This document shows positions 7,268 to 56,081 of a stretch of DNA of 60,037 nucleotides, piece after piece. This stretch comes from a virus. The stretch is from the IMG/VR virus record IMGVR_UViG_3300025652_000072, positions 1-60,037 of that record. One strand, given 5' to 3'. A program made the position numbers and the translations under genes. Position 1 is the first letter of the stretch. The number at the start of each line of letters is the position of its first letter. Below the pieces are notes generated by a model. It was given only the letters and a program-made list of their open reading frames with translations. It had not been told where the DNA came from and searched no databases.

Positions 7268-8236
7268 TTACCATCTCCTCATTAGCCACTCTACACAAGC
7301 CTTACGCCATGCTAGGTCTTCAATGTTTTCGGCATGGCGTACTGCTTCATCTATATTTTTTTCCTTCCAAGCACCCCAAGATAAATCCATAGGTGTAAGC
7401 ACTTGATCAAAGTAAGAGTTAGTATATGTATTGGTTTCATTGTTCATCCACCGTTCTAACTCTTTATCAAAACAAGCAGGTTCATCAACCAATGGTTTAG
7501 GGTTGTAATGCCCACTATCACCTAAATGCAGGTAAGGGTCGTAATCGGGTTCAATATTTTTTACTTTTTCTAACGTATCCACGTAAGCGTGTAAGTTATT
7601 ACTAAATTGATAATATGTACCTACCGCGCAATCTATCCTTGCCGCCATATATTCTAACAGTATAGACATATGAACAGCGTTTGCTCCATACGCCCCCCAT
7701 ATCATATCATTGCTCCTATTACATACAGTCATGTTTAACGTGTCGTCACGAACCCAAAACATAATCTGCGTATTGCAGGGATAATCTTTACCATCGTTAT
7801 CTGTAGAAAAATCTTTTGTAGGATCCCACATACCAATAACTGTACGACGATCGTTTTCATAATGAAGCAGACGGTGGATAGCTACTTCTAGTTGATCAAA
7901 GCCGAACCAGTTTTTCCACCTATGTCCATATGCACCGTGGAAGGTTACGCCATCGTCACTGTAATTATTAATTCTGCCATTATACTTAGAAATCCAATCA
8001 ACATCATTTCTACCTGCTAACATCCAAAACGATTCCATTAAATGGAAATAAGGGTTAGCGTCACGCATAGGGTAAAACAATACTCTTTCCCTGCTATGGC
8101 TGTAAGAAGTTACTACAGGACAAGCAAACTCTAATGCTTTACCATTGCGTGTGTCTACCTCAACACCTTTAGTTTCTAATGCCTGTACTGCTAGGTACAA
8201 TGCTTCACTTACATTTCTTGCACTTATATACTGCAT
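7268..8236 (-). CDS. Thymidylate synthase-family enzyme (probable dUMP hydroxymethylase or thymidylate synthase)
   Basis: A 322-residue member of the ThyA/dCMP-hydroxymethylase superfamily. Visible features: HLMESFWMLAG (E68), the catalytic Cys in YPCNTQIMF (C154; Asn follows instead of the usual His), NRSNDMIWG (R174, D177), the Asn of GAYGANAVH (N186) and LHAYVD (H216, Y218). The retained Asn favours dUMP over dCMP. The protein is related to phage enzymes that make either dTMP or 5-hydroxymethyl-dUMP, and sequence alone cannot decide. The adjacent glycosyltransferase and base-hypermodification gene point to 5-hydroxymethyl-dUMP as precursor of a modified thymine. AGAAAGG precedes the ATG. 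Confidence 0.85.
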   Translation of the reverse strand: MQYISARNVSEALYLAVQALETKGVEVDTRNGKALEFACPVVTSYSHSRERVLFYPMRDANPYFHLMESFWMLAGRNDVDWISKYNGRINNYSDDGVTFHGAYGHRWKNWFGFDQLEVAIHRLLHYENDRRTVIGMWDPTKDFSTDNDGKDYPCNTQIMFWVRDDTLNMTVCNRSNDMIWGAYGANAVHMSILLEYMAARIDCAVGTYYQFSNNLHAYVDTLEKVKNIEPDYDPYLHLGDSGHYNPKPLVDEPACFDKELERWMNNETNTYTNSYFDQVLTPMDLSWGAWKEKNIDEAVRHAENIEDLAWRKACVEWLMRRW

Positions 8237-8282
8237 TTAAAGCCTTTCTGAGCTCTCTAAGGTTTATAGGGGGGGCTAACTA

Positions 8283-9596
8283 CTAAAAACTAAGTTGAGT
8301 GCCTGTATGGGCGTTAAAATGGGGTGGTATATTGAAAAAGTCTAAGTTTTTGTCACAAGAGTTTTTTAACCCCACACTTGGGACACCTATCGGCATTGTC
8401 ACCCACCTATTAGCATCAGCTATTAAATCTATATACTCTTGTGCTACTGTTTTCATTTCAAACATTTTTAGTAAAGAAATGTTATTTGCACGGATACTTT
8501 CCCACTGATAACGGTTGTTCATGCTATCATTAATTATACTTGCAAACTCTTTAGGTGTAGCTGTATGGGGAACCTCTATAAAATTTTCTCCACCATAAAA
8601 TATCTCGCTATTTTTCATACCTAAATCGGTAGCAACTGGTACAGCACCCATCATCATAGCTTCTACAGTTGTTCTATTAAAATGCGCTCCGTACCCAGAA
8701 TATTTTTTAGACCAACTAGGGTCTATCTGTAACTTACGGTCTTTTAGTATTTCAAGTACATGGCTGTTTGGAATAGTGCCTACATACTCCATACCATTTG
8801 CAAGTGCGACATCCCAAATTTTATTACCGTCTGTATCAAAATACTGTGGCTTACACTTTTCTTTACTGGTCATATACCTGTACTCAATACCTGCACCACC
8901 AATACACTTGGTCACTTTTCTAAGAGGGTTTGAATCATACTCGTCGATGTAAGGTATGGCACGAATAAGTGTATCAACTCGTTTCCACGCTTTAAATACT
9001 TGTATCGCGGCAAACCCCTCTCTACGTTCCCAATCTATTTCAGTAACCGTATTGCTAAGATCAAAAGGGTTTACAATCATTTTCCTAGGTATGTCAAGAT
9101 TTACCGCTGAATGAAAAGCACTTTCATGAACACATACAGCCCCATGAAACCATTTAGAAACCAATAACAAATGAGGGTATAGCTTGGGTAAATTACCGTC
9201 ATGTATAATAGCTATGTTTTTAGTACCATTATTATATAACTCTACCCATTCGTCTACCCCTTTATTATCTTTGTTCAGGGTAGGTACAGGGATGTGCCAA
9301 AGTACAGCATCATACTTACTACAGTTCTCCCTAAACCGTTGCCTTACCCTATCATTTAAATAAGGATATTTGCGTAGGTTAGCCCAACCTTTTGCTTGAT
9401 GGTGACTGTAGCCTGTGCCAACTTTATCATAGTCACCCCCTATTAGTTTAAAACGTTCTTTAATTTCGTGTTTGGGAACAAGCATACAAAAGTCTACCTC
9501 ATGCCCTAATTCTTTTAACCCTTTTGCTAAAAACTCAACATGGTTAATGATACCGCCATAATCTTGTATTTGGTACAAGGTCATTAATATTTTCAT
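8283..9596 (-). CDS. Glycosyltransferase, GT-B fold (GT4-like)
   Basis: A 437-residue protein with the N-terminal pattern of GT4 enzymes (MKILMTLYQIQDYGGIINHV, then ELGHEVDFCML) and the C-terminal donor-binding segment FNRTTVEAMMMGAVPVATDLG. No signal peptide or membrane segment, so it acts in the cytoplasm. Its ATG overlaps the stop of the hypermodification gene upstream (ATGA), so the two are translated together. The most likely acceptor is the hydroxymethyl or further-modified pyrimidine of the phage DNA; a protein acceptor is less likely. The donor sugar cannot be read from sequence. Confidence 0.85.
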   Translation of the reverse strand: MKILMTLYQIQDYGGIINHVEFLAKGLKELGHEVDFCMLVPKHEIKERFKLIGGDYDKVGTGYSHHQAKGWANLRKYPYLNDRVRQRFRENCSKYDAVLWHIPVPTLNKDNKGVDEWVELYNNGTKNIAIIHDGNLPKLYPHLLLVSKWFHGAVCVHESAFHSAVNLDIPRKMIVNPFDLSNTVTEIDWERREGFAAIQVFKAWKRVDTLIRAIPYIDEYDSNPLRKVTKCIGGAGIEYRYMTSKEKCKPQYFDTDGNKIWDVALANGMEYVGTIPNSHVLEILKDRKLQIDPSWSKKYSGYGAHFNRTTVEAMMMGAVPVATDLGMKNSEIFYGGENFIEVPHTATPKEFASIINDSMNNRYQWESIRANNISLLKMFEMKTVAQEYIDLIADANRWVTMPIGVPSVGLKNSCDKNLDFFNIPPHFNAHTGTQLSF

Positions 9597-10507
9597 TGTA
9601 CAACTCCTTGCGGTAAGGGCTCACTGCTCTGTGTAAACTTACTGCGAGGTTTACCTTGGCCTAACCTTACTCGTTCGTACTTATCCCATTCACACAAGCT
9701 ATGCTCTATAGTACGCATATCTACTTGCCCAACAGGAACATGGTCATCTACGGAGAAAGCGGCTAAAGCATTCAGTTGTTTCATTTCTTCGTTGGCTACA
9801 TATTGAGTCATGCTTTTTGTTAAGGGCCTGTCCCAAATTCTATTCAACCCACGTTTTGCTCCAGGACCTGCATTGGCCCATGAGAACCTATCTACGGCGT
9901 TGTTCAAAACAGGTGTGTAGTTTAAATCAGTTACAACTTCGTAAGACATAAACCCACCACCTCCCCAACCTCTGTACTGTGATAACTTTCTGTGGGTAGT
10001 TTGCAAAGATTTAGACATACCTGCGGTAGCGGCAATGTCTCCTACATATTTATATATCGGTTTAAGGAAATGGTCAACAACAACATCTGCTTTAGGTAAT
10101 TTCAACCCTTGGTTTGTAATGATATACGCACCAGTGAAAGTACGCTTACCATCAGCTATCCTGTTTTTTATAATGTTTTTGGTACGCTCAGTGTCCCAAT
10201 CAAATTTGGTTGATGAAAGGGTAACCCAACCATGTTCCTCTGCAAATTCAGTTGTGCCTACCATCCTGAACAAACAACAGTTGAAAATTATTTCACTCCA
10301 GTTTTTATTATCGTGAGGTTTAGTCCAGTTGTTACGCATCCAAAGGGTAACCCTATCGTTTTCACGGAAAGGGTTTGTAAACTTATACTCTTGGAGTATG
10401 GGATCTTTTGTCCATTCAGACCTTGGTACACCCATGTTTCTCCGTTGGTATATGGCGTGTCTTTCATTTATCCAATAGAAAAACCTTTCTACGTTTTCCT
10501 TGTTCAT
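9593..10507 (-). CDS. DNA base hypermodification protein (HMUDK_hel / aGPT-PPlase family)
   Basis: A 304-residue protein whose N-terminus (FFYWINERHAIYQRRNMG ... WTKDPILQEYKFTNPFRE, then DRVTLWMRNNW) is the signature of the helical domain found in 5-hydroxymethyl-dU DNA kinases and alpha-glutamyl/putrescinyl-thymine pyrophosphorylases, annotated as putative DNA base hypermodification protein. These act on 5-hydroxymethyluracil in DNA, installing groups displaced later by amines or sugars. No P-loop is visible, so it is the stand-alone form rather than the kinase fusion. GGAG lies before the ATG. It heads a coupled unit with the glycosyltransferase and TS-family enzyme. Confidence 0.8.
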   Translation of the reverse strand: MNKENVERFFYWINERHAIYQRRNMGVPRSEWTKDPILQEYKFTNPFRENDRVTLWMRNNWTKPHDNKNWSEIIFNCCLFRMVGTTEFAEEHGWVTLSSTKFDWDTERTKNIIKNRIADGKRTFTGAYIITNQGLKLPKADVVVDHFLKPIYKYVGDIAATAGMSKSLQTTHRKLSQYRGWGGGGFMSYEVVTDLNYTPVLNNAVDRFSWANAGPGAKRGLNRIWDRPLTKSMTQYVANEEMKQLNALAAFSVDDHVPVGQVDMRTIEHSLCEWDKYERVRLGQGKPRSKFTQSSEPLPQGVVQ

Positions 10508-15862: not shown

Positions 15863-16660
15863 CTAAAACGGTACTTGGTCGTCAGGATCTGACCCCATAC
15901 TACTAGAGCCATCGTTTACTTGCACATCACCTGCTTTTACTGATTTAGCAAAAGCAACTGCCATTTCAAAGAACCCCTTATCCATATCGTCAGATAGGTT
16001 TAAGGCACGTTCCCTAGCTATTTCCCAACCATACCAACTACCTTTATCGTTTTGCTCTGGTACGCTTGTAATTTTGTATATCTGGGACATTAACGGCAAT
16101 GTATACAATCCGTTCTTGCCTTGGGCAGTTAGCGATTGTGCTTGCGTCAACCACTTACGGCCCTTCTTTAATTGTGTAGAAGCCATCGTTACCAATGCTT
16201 TTTGTGGGCCTAACTCAGGATGTAACATTAACACGTAGAACTGTGCAGTGTTGGTCAACTGGTTGCCGTTTGGTAGTAGGTCTTGCCCTTGGTCACTACG
16301 CACCACAGTTTTTACAATAGGGTCATCTGGGGTGTATGAACCTACATATCCACCACCTTCTTCCCTACCGCGCCACTCTACAAAGCGACGATTGTAATGG
16401 CAGGGTATCACATAAATACCTTCCTTTTCTGCTTCGTACACTTCGTTCAGTACAGTATTAAATATCATACCTGCTTCCGCACCTTCCACATACGCACCAT
16501 CACGTTTTTTAACTTGTGGGCTAACATCGGCAAGCACTCGTAAGAACGGAATAGCTAGGTCTTCTGTTTTTACCTCGCTGAAACCCTCACCTTGGAACTG
16601 CTCAAAACCTTCGTACATTGCAACTTCATTATTTGCTTTCTTAGCTACTTCTTGTGCCAT
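15863..16660 (-). CDS. Putative phage ssDNA-binding protein
   Basis: A 265-residue protein with a Ser/Gly/Asp-rich linker ending in the acidic tail SDPDDQVPF, the arrangement used by SSB proteins to contact partner enzymes. The central part (residues 35-210) is beta-rich with many aromatics (NRRFVEWRGREEGGGYVG, NTAQFYVLML). It sits directly upstream of the primase, helicase and polymerase. I have seen similar proteins annotated only as hypothetical or SSB in marine phages, so the role is inferred from tail and context. Confidence 0.65.
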   Translation of the reverse strand: MAQEVAKKANNEVAMYEGFEQFQGEGFSEVKTEDLAIPFLRVLADVSPQVKKRDGAYVEGAEAGMIFNTVLNEVYEAEKEGIYVIPCHYNRRFVEWRGREEGGGYVGSYTPDDPIVKTVVRSDQGQDLLPNGNQLTNTAQFYVLMLHPELGPQKALVTMASTQLKKGRKWLTQAQSLTAQGKNGLYTLPLMSQIYKITSVPEQNDKGSWYGWEIARERALNLSDDMDKGFFEMAVAFAKSVKAGDVQVNDGSSSMGSDPDDQVPF

Positions 16661-46143: not shown

Positions 46144-46626
46144 TTATGAAGCATCAGACGAGCTAGAAATCCCGAAAAATTTCAAAACAATTACTGTATC
46201 ACTTCCAGGATCACCAGAAACAACTAACTCAACTTCATCTGCTGTAGCACCACTAGCCGCAGTAGTATAACCAGACATGCCAAGAACACCATTACACCCA
46301 AAAAATCCTTTAAACCCAACCGAATTAACAGCGGCAGAAATACCATCTACATAACCGTCTGTATCTGCATCTGTACCAATATCATTTAGATTAACAGCGT
46401 TTGTTGATGCAGTAGTTACTGCTACAGTGACGCCCATCGGTATAAAGTTAGAAGGAATACCAATAGCCGCTTCTTTACCCGTAGTAGCACCATTTGCAAC
46501 GGTGATTGTTGCTTCATATGTTTGTAGAGTCATAGTGCTTGTGACAGCACCTGTTGTTGTATTTTTAGTTATATCTGAAAAACCGTTTTCAGAACGCACT
46601 GGTCCTGAGAAAGTAGTATTAGCCAT
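46144..46626 (-). CDS. Putative capsid decoration/head fibre protein, 160 aa
   Basis: Thr/Ser/Ala/Gly-rich, beta-strand pattern (GAVTSTMTLQTYEATITVAN). First gene after the double terminator behind the major capsid gene, with AGGAG nine bases before the ATG, so it must be made by read-through or from its own promoter. Family not recognised with certainty. Confidence 0.65.
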   Translation of the reverse strand: MANTTFSGPVRSENGFSDITKNTTTGAVTSTMTLQTYEATITVANGATTGKEAAIGIPSNFIPMGVTVAVTTASTNAVNLNDIGTDADTDGYVDGISAAVNSVGFKGFFGCNGVLGMSGYTTAASGATADEVELVVSGDPGSDTVIVLKFFGISSSSDAS

Positions 46627-46694: not shown

Positions 46695-46721
46695 AAAAAA
46701 ACCCCCTTGCACAAGGGGGTT
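46695..46721 (-). terminator. Rho-independent terminator T2 behind the capsid gene
   Basis: Minus strand: AACCCCCTTG pairs with CAAGGGGGTT and is followed by a run of seven U. Second of two terminators after the capsid gene. Confidence 0.9.
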
Positions 46722-46723
46722 GA

Positions 46724-46739
46724 TGTTTCACGTGAAACA
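46724..46739. promoter_or_regulatory. parS-like site, perfect consensus
   Basis: TGTTTCACGTGAAACA, a perfect 16-bp palindrome identical to the bacterial chromosomal parS consensus bound by ParB. It lies in the 159-bp gap between the major capsid gene and the next gene, enclosed by terminators T1 and T2. A partial extra half-site (TTTCACGT inverted, 46743-46750) flanks it. No parA or parB was found in the window, so host ParB would be the natural ligand. That binding is inferred, not shown. Confidence 0.85.
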
Positions 46740-46755
46740 ATTTTCACGTTTAAAT

Positions 46756-46781
46756 AAAAAAGGGGGGAATAATCCCCCCTT
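46756..46781 (-). terminator. Rho-independent terminator T1 behind the capsid gene
   Basis: Minus strand: GGGGGG, short loop GATTATT, CCCCCC, then TTTTTTATTT. Immediately after the stop of the major capsid gene (46786). It should cap the high capsid transcript level. Confidence 0.9.
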
Positions 46782-46785
46782 AATA

Positions 46786-47697
46786 TTAAGCGGCTCCTGG
46801 AGAACCAAACACACACCTAGGGTCTGAAACCCCAAAACTGTATCTTTCACGAGCTTTATAACGAGCATTACCTGTATCAAAATCACCTTCCATAGAAGTT
46901 TTGATTGCGCTACGCTCAAAATGTTTAAAGCCGTTAGGAGCATCTGTTTTAATGAAAAACGCATCCGTATCGGTTAGGAAGTGGTTTACCACATAACCTT
47001 CTGGGAGCATTCCCATATTACGAACAGCGTTTATATCATTGTCTGCTGTTCCCGTACGAAGATTAGAAGCCATCAACCTTTCAGCTACGAACTGAAGTGC
47101 AGGTGGAATAATCATCTTACGGCCTTGCAGAGCAATTTTCAACCCACGCTCATCAATGAAAGCAGAAATGTCTATAAGAGACTGCTCTAGTGATGTTTCG
47201 TTAAGGTCAGCTGCTGTCGCTAACTCGTTAGCAAAGTTACCACCACCTACAGTTGGATGGTCTGTAGCACAAAGCTCTTTTCCATCACCATAAGTAGTAC
47301 CACTGTCAAACGCATTGTTTAGAACAGCGGCTGCTTTAACTTGCTTCGTGTTTGCCATGGAACGAGCTAATGCCTTTGTGTAACGAGAGCTAAGTCGGTC
47401 ATAGAGGTTATCCTCTACAGCTTCTTCAGTTATCGCAAACGCAAGGGAAATTGTTTCATGGGTGTAACGAGCAGTGTAAGCTTCGTTGGCAGTATCAAAA
47501 GAAACTGCTTGTCCTTCGCCTTTCACTGGTGCGCTACCAAACCCTGATAACATTACCTCTTCTTCAAACGCTCTGTCTGAAGATTCCGTTTCAAAAATTT
47601 CAGCATGTTCATTGTCATACCGATCGTATTCCAATCCAAAAAGCGCATGAAGTCCGGGTTCAAGCTCTTTAAGGAGTTGAGATCTTGCTATAGCCAT
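46786..47697 (-). CDS. Major capsid protein, Mu gpT-like
   Basis: 303 residues. The sequence (RSQLLKELEPGLHALFGLEY, EEEVMLSGFGSAPVKGEG, ARYTHETISLAFAITEEA, ALARSMANTKQVKAAAVLN) is the pattern of the Mu-like major head subunit family found in uncultured marine phages. No prohead protease is obvious nearby. AAGGAGGA precedes the ATG. Expressed from the late operon and closed by two terminators, consistent with a high-abundance protein. Confidence 0.88.
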   Translation of the reverse strand: MAIARSQLLKELEPGLHALFGLEYDRYDNEHAEIFETESSDRAFEEEVMLSGFGSAPVKGEGQAVSFDTANEAYTARYTHETISLAFAITEEAVEDNLYDRLSSRYTKALARSMANTKQVKAAAVLNNAFDSGTTYGDGKELCATDHPTVGGGNFANELATAADLNETSLEQSLIDISAFIDERGLKIALQGRKMIIPPALQFVAERLMASNLRTGTADNDINAVRNMGMLPEGYVVNHFLTDTDAFFIKTDAPNGFKHFERSAIKTSMEGDFDTGNARYKARERYSFGVSDPRCVFGSPGAA

Positions 47698-52239: not shown

Positions 52240-54615
52240 TCAACCTCTAGTATTTGCATTTTTCTGTTGTGCTATCCTCGCTCGCATTTGAGCAATATCT
52301 TCTGTACTGTTAATTCTATCTTGACCTAACTGGAACTGTTGCTGTTGCCGTTGTTGGTCAAGTGCTAATTTCCTTTGATCTATTTGTTGGTCTGCCATCA
52401 TTTCCTGTTCACGCAACTGCAACTCTTGCTGTTTTATCTGCACTAATGGGTCTTGGTCTTGTGCAGGTGGTTGTGATTGTTGAAACTGAGCAAATAACTG
52501 TGCTTGCATCTGGGCAACCATAGCTTCCTGTTGCTCTGGCGGTACTTGTTGCCCCTGCATTTGTTGTTGAACAGCAACTTTCGCTTTTAACCCTAAATGC
52601 TCGTATATATGTTTTTCTAACAATATCGCAACAGGTGGTTGTATCTGCGCTACTTTACTATTCATGTATGCTAGATGCACCGCAATATGAGCATCGTGGT
52701 CCTGTTCTGGAAACGCCTGTAATGTACCCTGTCCATTTGCAACATTACTTGTTTCCATGTTTTCCATAGCAGGATCCATGGGACGTTGTTCAGGTTCCGG
52801 TTTTAGTATTTGGTCTATATTATTCACACCTAACGCTTCATACACACGGTGGTATGCCTCATACAAATTGTGCATATCGGGGGCCGCTACCGCTAATTTT
52901 AACTGCTCTTGAGCTAAAACAACCCTTTGTGACATACTAAAGATGTTCGGGTCACTTACTGGTAGTATATCTATCCTACCATCAAAATCTTGGCTTTTTA
53001 TCTGCCCATCTACACCTGTATCGTAAGGGTAAGGCCGTGGATCTTGGGCAAATAACGCTCCTAACATCTTTAATTCATGTTTTAATGACGCATGTAGCCG
53101 TTTATGCACCGCTGAAACTATACGGCTTCCTCGCTCAAGTAACGCAATGGTCGTACCAACTGGCATTTCTTGGTTACCCTGACCAACACCCATATCAGTC
53201 GTACCAATAAAGCGTTGCGCGGCCTCAACAACAAAACCCATAAGCTGAAACAGGGTAGCACTCGGCTCTTTATACGGTAATGGCATCAAAGACGCCTTTA
53301 AATCTCCTCCAGGAACATCAACATCCCTAAATTCTCCAGGACTCAACGGGTTTTGCTCATCTGCAATCCGCAAACCGCGAGCTTTAAACCCTGCGGGCAT
53401 ATTTGCCAACGTTCCTGAGTCAATTAACTGGCGTAAATTAGCCGTTGCCGTACGAGACAAGTTGCCAAGCAAATGTATCAGCCCAAAACCATAAAAACCA
53501 AGTCCTGGAGTAAATTTATACTGCACGAAATGTTGAATTTTATCTTTATTTGGGTCATCTTGTAGGTAATTACGCCTAATTGACAATACATCCCCTGTAT
53601 CTTTACATACAGTTACGATATAAGGCAGTTTTAAACCTGTTTCTTCGTCATTTTCTCCCTTATCTGCATATTCTTCTAGGTCTAAGAAACAATGACATTC
53701 GTACAAAGTAAACTGTTCATCATTATATGTAGGGCTTATGCCTTCTATATCATCATAAGCTGATTGAACTTCATCCGTAGAGGAAGAAGCACTGCTTTCC
53801 CCCTCCATATCCATGTAAAAACCAGAAAGTTGTAACTTCTTCAACTCATTTTGTGAGATTTTTATAACATGTGTTATACGTTCTGCCGACTGTAAGTCCG
53901 TAGCAATGTATGGAACAATCACTTCTTCAGCAGGAACAAACTTACTTACTGGCCTATCTAGCATTTCATCACGATAAACCTTCTTAAACGCACTTCCTGC
54001 CAAACCTAAGTAATAAAGCATCTGGTCAAACTCAGGCTCGTACTCTTCCATTTCATACATTATCTGGTAATTCATGTATTCCTGCACACGTTGAGCCTGT
54101 TGCTCTATCGCAGGAGTAGGCATACCAATAATATTCGCGCGGACAGGGCCTCCACTTGGCAACATCTCCTTATAAGCAGATGCCTGAAACTGTGTAATAG
54201 CCTCGTTCAGTAATGGGTGGATAACACCAGTTGCACCTTCAAACGGTTCCGTACGAGTTTCGTACCGCATACCCAGTAAATCCAAACCCTTTACATAAGT
54301 ATCTTCCCAATCACTACGGCTGTTTTTATCCTCCTCTACAGAAGACGTAACATAACTCGCAACCTCACCTAATGTAGTATCTTTTAAATTTTCCGCTAAA
54401 TTATCGTAAAAGTTTTCTGGCTCCTCACCAAAAACAACCTCTTCCATACCTGTAGTTATTTCTACCCCACCATCATCATCTTCTACAATTTCAACCTCGC
54501 CATCAAAAAACATATCCTGCTGAGCTTGTAGATCCTCCTCTTCAAAACTCATATCCTCTACAGGAGCCTGTATCAACGCCCGATCTACATTATTTACCTT
54601 AGGAGACAATGCCAT
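52240..54615 (-). CDS. Portal protein, P22-like
   Basis: 791 residues, long as in P22-type portals (about 725). Acidic N-terminus (EEEDLQAQQDMFFDGEVEIV), core with EDTYVKGLDLLGMRYETRTE and a long alpha-helical, Gln-rich C-terminal tail (AQFQQSQPPAQDQDPLVQ...), comparable to the barrel helix of P22. Forms the dodecameric ring through which DNA is packaged by the terminase. Its ATG overlaps the end of the terminase gene by one base. Confidence 0.9.
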   Translation of the reverse strand: MALSPKVNNVDRALIQAPVEDMSFEEEDLQAQQDMFFDGEVEIVEDDDGGVEITTGMEEVVFGEEPENFYDNLAENLKDTTLGEVASYVTSSVEEDKNSRSDWEDTYVKGLDLLGMRYETRTEPFEGATGVIHPLLNEAITQFQASAYKEMLPSGGPVRANIIGMPTPAIEQQAQRVQEYMNYQIMYEMEEYEPEFDQMLYYLGLAGSAFKKVYRDEMLDRPVSKFVPAEEVIVPYIATDLQSAERITHVIKISQNELKKLQLSGFYMDMEGESSASSSTDEVQSAYDDIEGISPTYNDEQFTLYECHCFLDLEEYADKGENDEETGLKLPYIVTVCKDTGDVLSIRRNYLQDDPNKDKIQHFVQYKFTPGLGFYGFGLIHLLGNLSRTATANLRQLIDSGTLANMPAGFKARGLRIADEQNPLSPGEFRDVDVPGGDLKASLMPLPYKEPSATLFQLMGFVVEAAQRFIGTTDMGVGQGNQEMPVGTTIALLERGSRIVSAVHKRLHASLKHELKMLGALFAQDPRPYPYDTGVDGQIKSQDFDGRIDILPVSDPNIFSMSQRVVLAQEQLKLAVAAPDMHNLYEAYHRVYEALGVNNIDQILKPEPEQRPMDPAMENMETSNVANGQGTLQAFPEQDHDAHIAVHLAYMNSKVAQIQPPVAILLEKHIYEHLGLKAKVAVQQQMQGQQVPPEQQEAMVAQMQAQLFAQFQQSQPPAQDQDPLVQIKQQELQLREQEMMADQQIDQRKLALDQQRQQQQFQLGQDRINSTEDIAQMRARIAQQKNANTRG

Positions 54616-56081
54616 TAATAGTAACTCCTCATTCTAGGGGCAGACTCTTCATCCTCATAATCTTCCGGATGTTGAATAAAACCGCCCTCTCTAAATCTTC
54701 GCAACGCCTGTGTCACCGTATCAACATAATCATCATGCTCTCCGGCAGGAAACGCCGCACACTCCTCAATAACTTCTTCCGACCAACGTGTATCTGGAGC
54801 CCATACTAATCCTGATTCTAGTAAAGGTGCAATAGAATTCACTCTCGTATGTTTATCATTTCCTCTCGACGGGCTGTAATTCTGTACCGGAATGCCCATG
54901 TTCCGCAACTCCTGAGTCAACGGCATACCCGACGCTTTCGCCTCAATCAACACACACTCGGGGTCCCAATACTTATACTCCTCTAACGCCTTACGACGCA
55001 AGTCCGGAAAATCCCATCTGCCTCTCTGCGCATCAACCAATAATATATTCGCAGGAGCACCATCATATGGATAAAAAACACCCCACGTTGTTATAGCACT
55101 AAAATCCGCAGACTCCTTCTTACTATACGCTGTATCATAAGACTGCATCACATAATCTAAATTAGGCAAATCCTCCTTCTTCCACTCCTGCCACCACTCA
55201 CGTTTAAGTATCGCGGCTCCCTCACTCGTCGGGTTCTGCTGCCACTGCGCTTCCCACTTACCTACAGACAAACTTCCCTTAACCGCTAATAAATCTTCTT
55301 GCTTCCAATACTCAGGCCACAACGGTTTATTTGTCTCGGGCATCAAAGCAGGGAACTCCACAACCTCCCACTTATCAGCCAATATATCTCGCGCTTGCTG
55401 TCGCAACAACTTCCCCGTCAAATCGTTTTCTGCCCAACGAGTCATTATAATTACTATACTCCCTCCGGGCTGTAACCTTTGACGTGGCCCAGAAGTATAC
55501 CACTCATACGCATGTTCCAACGCAGTAGGGGACAAAGCATCTTGCTCGGAATGGGGGTCATCGATAATTAACAAATCCGCACCACGGCCCGTCACCGCTC
55601 CACCAACTCCAGCCGCAAAATATTCACCACCCTTAGAAGTTTCCCATCTTCCAGCAGCTTGGCTATCCGCTCGCAACTCCACATCAAATATTCCACGGTA
55701 CTCCTGCGAATTCATCAGGTTTCTCGTCTTACGTCCAAACCTAAACGCCAACTCCGCAGTATGCGTAGTCTGCATTATCTTCAACGTAGGCCTCTTACCC
55801 ATCAACCACGAAGGCAGCAAATAACTTCCAAACTCACTCTTCGTATGTCGGGGGGGCATATTCACAATTAAACGCTTTAAATCACCAGTAGCCAAACGAT
55901 TAAACTTCTCAGCCATAATTCCATGGTGGCGACCATTCACAAACTCAGGCCAAACCATTTTACAATACGTCATAAAATCATTCTGCGCAGCTTCAGTCTT
56001 ACTCAAATAACTCGCACGGTCCAATAACGTAGCAAACTTCTTCAAATGTTCCTCAGGAACATACTCTAAACCACTATCCAT
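54615..56081 (-). CDS. Terminase large subunit (TIGR01630-like)
   Basis: 488 residues. ATPase domain: Walker A-like PPRHTKSE (residues 76-83), Walker B LLIIDDPH near 170, and IIMTRWAENDLTG (coupling motif). Nuclease domain: SYDTAYSKKESAD, LIEAKASG and GEHDDYVDT carry the acidic residues of an RNase H-fold nuclease. Packaging motor and headful or site-specific cutting enzyme; partner small subunit is at 58697. Confidence 0.94.
   Translation of the reverse strand: MDSGLEYVPEEHLKKFATLLDRASYLSKTEAAQNDFMTYCKMVWPEFVNGRHHGIMAEKFNRLATGDLKRLIVNMPPRHTKSEFGSYLLPSWLMGKRPTLKIMQTTHTAELAFRFGRKTRNLMNSQEYRGIFDVELRADSQAAGRWETSKGGEYFAAGVGGAVTGRGADLLIIDDPHSEQDALSPTALEHAYEWYTSGPRQRLQPGGSIVIIMTRWAENDLTGKLLRQQARDILADKWEVVEFPALMPETNKPLWPEYWKQEDLLAVKGSLSVGKWEAQWQQNPTSEGAAILKREWWQEWKKEDLPNLDYVMQSYDTAYSKKESADFSAITTWGVFYPYDGAPANILLVDAQRGRWDFPDLRRKALEEYKYWDPECVLIEAKASGMPLTQELRNMGIPVQNYSPSRGNDKHTRVNSIAPLLESGLVWAPDTRWSEEVIEECAAFPAGEHDDYVDTVTQALRRFREGGFIQHPEDYEDEESAPRMRSYY

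What the first reader, a model, noticed from the sequence alone, without database searches (positions are those of the whole stretch)
46695..46781. Perfect bacterial parS site insulated between two strong terminators in a phage without visible ParA/ParB
TGTTTCACGTGAAACA (46724-46739) equals the chromosomal parS consensus at all 16 positions; a chance match in 60 kb is very unlikely. It sits in the only gap of the head/tail gene run that holds two rho-independent terminators, so ParB loading there would be shielded from transcription. I found no ParA- or ParB-like gene. The phage may recruit host ParB, for plasmid-like partition, for positioning its replicating DNA, or as a decoy that disturbs host segregation. 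A partial extra half-site beside it suggests a larger binding region.
Basis: partly seen in the sequence, partly recalled or inferred. Interest (0 to 1): 0.85.

Follow-up and report, generated by a model that had tools for sequence, protein, structure and literature searches.

The report
Host centromere sites in ParB-less phages
This marine phage, and many of its relatives, carries a perfect copy of the bacterial chromosome's centromere-like site (parS) but no detectable partition genes, and in one related group the site is kept letter for letter while the DNA around it changes, which suggests that these phages borrow the host's chromosome-segregation protein.

Summary
TGTTTCACGTGAAACA lies at 46724-46739, between two strong minus-strand terminators downstream of the major capsid gene. 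The record has no detectable ParB, ParA or tyrosine integrase.

Relatives show it is not an accident. IMG/VR holds at least 120 stretches with the exact 16-mer, against 1 and 5 for two control palindromes. Of those 120, 37-45 carry head genes of this phage family (relatives of Pelagibacter phages HTVC027P/HTVC023P), against 1-5 of 120 control contigs. In a sister clade sampled by terminase protein, 57 of 79 loci have the exact site 84-152 bp upstream of terL, while third codon positions are only 56% identical. All 11 sister-clade records of at least 25 kb carry exactly one site, sometimes elsewhere. At the window's own locus two capsid clades keep the site; one close relative (L209) keeps both terminators but has lost it.

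Best reading: an orphan cis-acting parS loaded by host ParB, most likely for SMC- or ParA-based handling of replicating phage DNA. One site per genome speaks against a decoy, and changing position against local gene control. Binding and function are inferred. I found no report of it in the open-access library; preprints were not searchable.

The parts
46724..46739 (.). parS: TGTTTCACGTGAAACA, perfect palindrome identical to the chromosomal consensus
   Evidence: consensus as used in PMC10197239 and given as TGTTNCACGTGAAACA for B. subtilis in PMC7022226
46741..46750 (+). adjacent half-site TTTTCACGTT; present in the near-identical L206, absent in L215, L219 and the second clade, so probably incidental
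46760..46781 (-). intrinsic terminator directly after the capsid gene (AAGGGGGGATTATTCCCCCCTT TTTT)
   Evidence: conserved in L206, L209, L215, L219
46700..46721 (-). second intrinsic terminator in tandem (AACCCCCTTGTGCAAGGGGGTT TTTTT)
   Evidence: conserved in L206, L209, L215, L219
46786..47697 (-). major capsid protein gene (phrog_371), just upstream of the site in the direction of transcription
46144..46626 (-). next gene downstream, unknown function (phrog_36974)
54615..56081 (-). terminase large subunit gene; in the sister clade the parS lies 84-152 bp upstream of this gene instead

Best explanation
The 16-mer is a genuine parS site that works in trans with the host's ParB. After injection, host ParB loads at the phage parS as a CTP-dependent clamp and slides onto neighbouring phage DNA. 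The ParB-coated phage replicon then acts in cis as a small chromosome: it recruits host SMC-ScpAB and/or ParA, so replicating or concatemeric phage DNA is compacted, untangled and placed for packaging. Shown here: the site, its letter-for-letter conservation in a sister clade, its re-use at other positions, one copy per genome in that clade, absence of detectable ParA/ParB genes in the records tested, and the same 16-mer beside rsmG/parA in Pelagibacteraceae single-cell genomes that also hold family phage contigs. Inferred: ParB binding, spreading, and the SMC/ParA consequence.
For: Family head genes on 37 (>=40% identity) to 45 (any) of the 120 parS contigs, against 1 to 5 of 120 control contigs. 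In the sister clade sampled by TerL protein, 57 of 79 loci have the exact site and 2 a one-mismatch site upstream of terL, with a two-peaked distribution (0-1 or at least 5 mismatches; the control is never below 5). Twenty-one of 27 TerL-dereplicated representatives have the exact upstream site at 56% third-position identity. Among 19 flank-dereplicated sites, parS columns are 99.7% conserved and flanks about 70%. All 11 sister-clade records of at least 25 kb have exactly one site, including G060 where it lies about 6.6 kb upstream of terL. Two capsid clades keep the site after the capsid gene; 3 changes on the tree against 8.8 for shuffled labels. Departures include the known parS variant GTTCCACGTGAAAC. 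No ParB_N match over the cut-off in 25 + 16 records, no HTH_ParB and no ParA in 25. Pelagibacteraceae single-cell genomes with family phage contigs carry TGTTTCACGTGAAACA in rsmG next to parA.
Against: No binding data. In the window's own clade the site is not universal: 9 of 155 capsid rows have it after the capsid gene, and 7 of 29 larger records not chosen for parS have a core site anywhere. Close relative L209 has lost it, so it cannot be strictly essential there. HTVC023P, 023Pt_psg01 and DSL-LC04 have none, and the single HTVC027P site lies in what looks like a coding frame. The family phage contigs in the two single-cell genomes whose chromosomal parS was read do not themselves carry parS. 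The window encodes a likely thymine-hypermodification cassette, which could alter ParB binding to a T-rich site. The sister-clade sample is centred on a phage first found by its parS.
Confidence: 0.55

Rival explanations
1. Decoy: amplified phage genomes titrate host ParB (and SMC) away from the chromosome, stalling host segregation and division to the phage's benefit.
For: Host-identical site without phage ParB; some relatives carry 2-3 sites and distant ones up to five (L127, L100).
Against: Titration should favour many sites per genome, yet 11 of 11 sister-clade records of at least 25 kb have exactly one; a single-copy conserved site looks like a cis element.
Confidence: 0.15
2. Local transcription control: host ParB bound at parS represses, roadblocks or insulates neighbouring late genes (terL, or the gene after the capsid gene).
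For: Sites are mostly intergenic: 17-26 of 60 family sites fall inside ORFs against 82-92% ORF coverage. In the sister clade most sites sit about 110 bp upstream of terL. ParB can repress promoters next to parS in P. aeruginosa (PMC5521831, title).
Against: The neighbouring gene changes while the site persists: terL -84 to -152, about -1,060, about -6,600, or after the capsid gene. In the window the site lies between two terminators.
Confidence: 0.12
3. Plasmid-like carrier state: parS lets an extrachromosomal prophage be partitioned by the host ParABS.
For: Phage-plasmids with partition systems exist (PMC11652158, PMC7157519).
Against: No tyrosine integrase or ParA in the record; replication genes are of lytic type (DNA polymerase A, primase, helicase); family member HTVC027P is described as obligately lytic (PMC12753301).
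Confidence: 0.06
4. The palindrome is the binding site of an unrecognised phage-encoded regulator that happens to share parS specificity.
For: Many genes of the record have no assigned function, so such a protein could be missed.
Against: The site equals the chromosomal 16-mer and varies as chromosomal parS does (GTTCCACGTGAAAC); no HTH_ParB match in 25 records; parS without ParB also occurs in unrelated viral contigs (46 of 50 without a ParB_N match).
Confidence: 0.07
5. Chance palindrome, or an RNA hairpin that is part of the terminator region.
For: Many relatives have other short inverted repeats right after the capsid stop codon.
Against: Expected 1.4e-5 per 60 kb; control palindromes give 1 and 5 hits in IMG/VR against at least 120; in the sister clade the exact sequence, not just pairing, is kept.
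Confidence: 0.02

Closest known systems
Chromosomal parS of the ParABS system (consensus TGTTTCACGTGAAACA)
   Same: All 16 positions; exact or near-exact conservation; the same variant position (T/C); mostly intergenic.
   Different: On phage genomes of about 60 kb without detectable parA/parB, usually one copy, not near a bacterial origin.
Partition systems of phage-plasmids (P1, N15, extrachromosomal mycobacteriophages)
   Same: A centromere-like site on a phage genome.
   Different: Those encode their own ParA/ParB and use their own sites for prophage maintenance (own knowledge; PMC7157519 for mycobacteriophages); in this family no such genes were detected, an integrase is absent from nearly all records tested, and a relative is lytic.
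Lambda-parS / CFP-ParB imaging constructs (PMC13190303)
   Same: Show that a parS placed on an infecting phage genome is found and coated by ParB in the cell, with replication and lysis still occurring.
   Different: Artificial parS and artificial ParB; here the pairing would be natural, with the host's own ParB.
ParB-only Staphylococcus phages such as Lacachita (PMC10286716)
   Same: An incomplete partition set on a phage.
   Different: The mirror case: a parB gene without a ParA; here a site without ParB.

Membership tests
chromosomal-type parS site | 16-bp palindrome matching TGTTTCACGTGAAACA with at most 1-2 mismatches | tested here: met
   16 of 16
chromosomal-type parS site | sequence conserved beyond its surroundings | tested here: met
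   strong in the sister clade; conserved within two capsid clades with one loss at the window's locus
chromosomal-type parS site | bound by ParB with CTP-dependent clamp loading | not testable with these tools
   needs a ParB binding assay or ChIP-seq
complete ParABS partition system | parA and parB encoded on the same replicon | tested here: not met
   no PF13614, PF02195 or PF17762 match in the record
phage-plasmid / temperate phage | integrase or plasmid maintenance genes | tested here: not met
   no PF00589 in the record, no ParA; serine recombinases and RepA were not searched specifically
HTVC023P-type pelagiphage relatives | TerL and capsid homology to HTVC027P/HTVC023P | tested here: met
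   TerL 62% and 59% identity, capsid 71% to HTVC027P
HTVC023P-type pelagiphage relatives | host is SAR11 | tested here: inconclusive
   relatives occur in Pelagibacteraceae single-cell genomes and in many other MAGs; the window's host is unknown; window GC is 40%

The most novel reading that the evidence does not exclude
A large group of ParB-less, apparently lytic phages depends on the host's centromere machinery: an orphan parS makes host ParB and SMC treat replicating phage DNA as chromosome, to organise it for packaging or to shield it from DNA-sensing defences.
Probability: 0.45. Interest if true: 0.9.

Novelty: new variant of a known kind. Interest (0 to 1): 0.8.

Why it matters
ParB-parS is the nearly universal bacterial chromosome-segregation system. 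A conserved host-type parS on phages without partition genes would mean that abundant marine viruses use, or subvert, the host centromere machinery during infection. It gives natural parS-plus and parS-minus relatives (window/L206 against L209) and a directly testable prediction: host ParB foci on infecting phage DNA. It also suggests scanning all viral genomes for orphan host-centromere sites; 46 of 50 parS-bearing viral records outside this family had no ParB_N match either.

Tried and rejected
Chance: rejected by two control palindromes and a control-contig sample. Hidden ParB: ParB_N, HTH_ParB and ParA profiles negative. RNA hairpin: exact sequence rather than pairing is conserved. Enlarged site with a half-site: not conserved. 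Insulation by two terminators as a general rule: not conserved. HTVC027P as a cultured example: its site (CGTTTCACGTGAAACA, 16412-16427) sits in what reads as a nuclease-like coding frame (FHVKH), so I treat it as weak. Single-cell hosts: the family phage contigs in AG-404-L13 and AG-919-D18 lack parS although the host chromosomes have it, so no infected cell with both sites was found. Prior art: open-access searches for phage-borne or orphan parS found none; preprints and subscription papers are not covered.

Full report
Observation. The window is a 60,037-bp virus record in the local collection. The 16-mer TGTTTCACGTGAAACA is at 46724-46739 and nothing else in the window comes within three mismatches. 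It follows the major capsid gene (46786-47697, minus strand; phrog_371) and lies between two minus-strand terminators (46781-46760 and 46721-46700). Head genes are related to Pelagibacter phages HTVC027P and HTVC023P, phage 023Pt_psg01 and phage DSL-LC04 (TerL 59-62%). HTVC027P is described as an obligately lytic HTVC023P-type pelagiphage (PMC12753301). The window encodes a family A DNA polymerase, primase, helicase and thymidylate synthase. It has no ParB_N, HTH_ParB, ParA or tyrosine integrase match.

Is it more than chance? A scan of IMG/VR for the exact 16-mer stopped at 120 stretches. The reversed palindrome gives 1 and a permuted palindrome that keeps CACGTG gives 5. Of the 120 parS stretches, 37 carry a head gene of this phage family at 40% identity or more and 45 at any identity; of 120 stretches drawn with an arbitrary 14-mer, 1 and 5 do. 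So parS is over-represented in viral contigs, and this family is over-represented among the carriers. Six of seven longer records found through one exact site carry two or three core sites. Between 17 and 26 of 60 family sites fall inside ORFs, whereas ORFs cover 82-92% of that DNA.

The window's own locus. Around the capsid gene, parS occurs in two clades: {window, L206, L215, L219} and {L010, L012, L015, L259, L263}, with 3 changes on the capsid tree against 8.8 for shuffled labels. L206 is 99.8% identical to the window over 12.6 kb and is close to the same phage. L215 and L219 (about 83% identity) keep both terminators and have TGTTCCACGTGAAACA, a known kind of parS variant. L209 (about 92% over its aligned parts) keeps both terminators but lacks the site and the neighbouring half-site by a 23-column gap, and has no site with up to two mismatches anywhere in its 60,299 bp. 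The second clade has GTTTCACGTGAAAC a few bases after the capsid stop, before a single terminator. Most capsid relatives have no site there (9 of 155 rows do). Of 29 larger records not chosen by parS, 7 have a core site somewhere. The site is therefore kept within lineages but is not universal in this part of the family.

The sister clade. Many parS carriers have the site shortly upstream of terL. To sample this group by protein instead of by the site, I searched with one such TerL (L110, itself found through its parS, so the sample is centred on a carrier). Of 79 loci, 57 have the exact 16-mer and 2 a one-mismatch version 84-152 bp upstream of terL; the rest have nothing closer than 5 mismatches there, and some of these have too little upstream sequence. 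The control palindrome never comes closer than 5. After dereplication on TerL DNA, 21 of 27 representatives have the exact upstream site, although their third codon positions are on average only 56% identical. Over 19 flank-dereplicated sites, parS columns average 99.7% conservation and 60 bp on either side about 70%. All 11 records of at least 25 kb have exactly one core site. In G060 it is about 6.6 kb upstream of terL, and four loci (L650, L653, L654, L657) have it about 1,060 bp upstream. No ParB_N match occurs in 16 records of this clade.

Hosts. Family capsid genes are found in Pelagibacteraceae single-cell genomes and in many MAGs. Two of the single-cell genomes (AG-404-L13 and AG-919-D18) carry TGTTTCACGTGAAACA in rsmG next to parA, and a SAR116 MAG has it just downstream of a GTPase gene that I read as mnmE (gene names read from the translations, not by a family search). 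This is the same 16-mer as in the window. The family phage contigs in those two single-cell genomes have no core site themselves, and the window's host is unknown.

Mechanism. The exact sequence, the known variant, the absence of detectable ParA and ParB, and identity with chromosomal sites make host ParB the most economical reader of the site. ParB loads at parS, spreads, recruits SMC-ScpAB and interacts with ParA (established; reviewed in PMC7022226 and PMC7333895). Lambda engineered with parS is coated by ParB after injection and still replicates and lyses (PMC13190303), so the step is physically possible. One site per genome argues for a cis function over titration, and turnover of position argues against control of one neighbouring gene. 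The most likely use is organisation of replicating or concatemeric phage DNA through SMC and/or ParA. That last step is inference. Loss in L209 shows that the site is dispensable in at least one lineage. The window's likely thymine-modification genes add a real uncertainty about binding to native phage DNA.

Novelty. Phage-plasmids encode their own ParA/ParB and their own sites, and Staphylococcus phages with a lone parB are known (PMC10286716). I found no open-access report of host-type orphan parS in lytic phages, nor any mention of parS in the paper on 80 uncultured relatives (PMC9599517). Preprints and most subscription papers were not searchable, so priority is not established.

Noticed in passing
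window 7268-10507 (-): Thymidylate synthase homologue, a glycosyltransferase-like protein (scores near the Pfam cut-offs) and a 5-hmdU DNA kinase helical-domain protein (PF18723) in a row: a likely thymine-hypermodification cassette.
   Followed up: partly
L034, L036, L038, L040, L044, L057 just after the capsid stop: A different perfect palindrome, CGAACAATTGTTCG, occupies the same slot before the terminator; from memory it resembles a GAACN4GTTC LexA-type box.
   Followed up: no
L100 (2657-3444), L127 (10535-11462), L136 (240-961): Arrays of three to five exact parS sites upstream of terL in distant relatives (TerL about 30% identity); no ParB_N match in these partial contigs.
   Followed up: partly
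non-family parS contigs among L085-L199 (50 records tested): 46 of 50 viral records outside this family that carry an exact parS have no ParB_N match at E <= 0.001, so orphan parS may be widespread in viruses.
   Followed up: partly
L166, L176, L203, L180, L112, L110 upstream of terL: A GGGGNCCC(C)-type motif recurs between parS and the terL start codon.
   Followed up: no
L180, about 20 bp beside its exact site: A second site, TGTTCCACGTGGAACA, next to TGTTTCACGTGAAACA.
   Followed up: no
L466 (CP070693.1, 1081055-1101963): A family capsid gene inside a MAG record labelled as a Dehalococcoidia chromosome; likely misassembly or contamination, or an unusual host.
   Followed up: no
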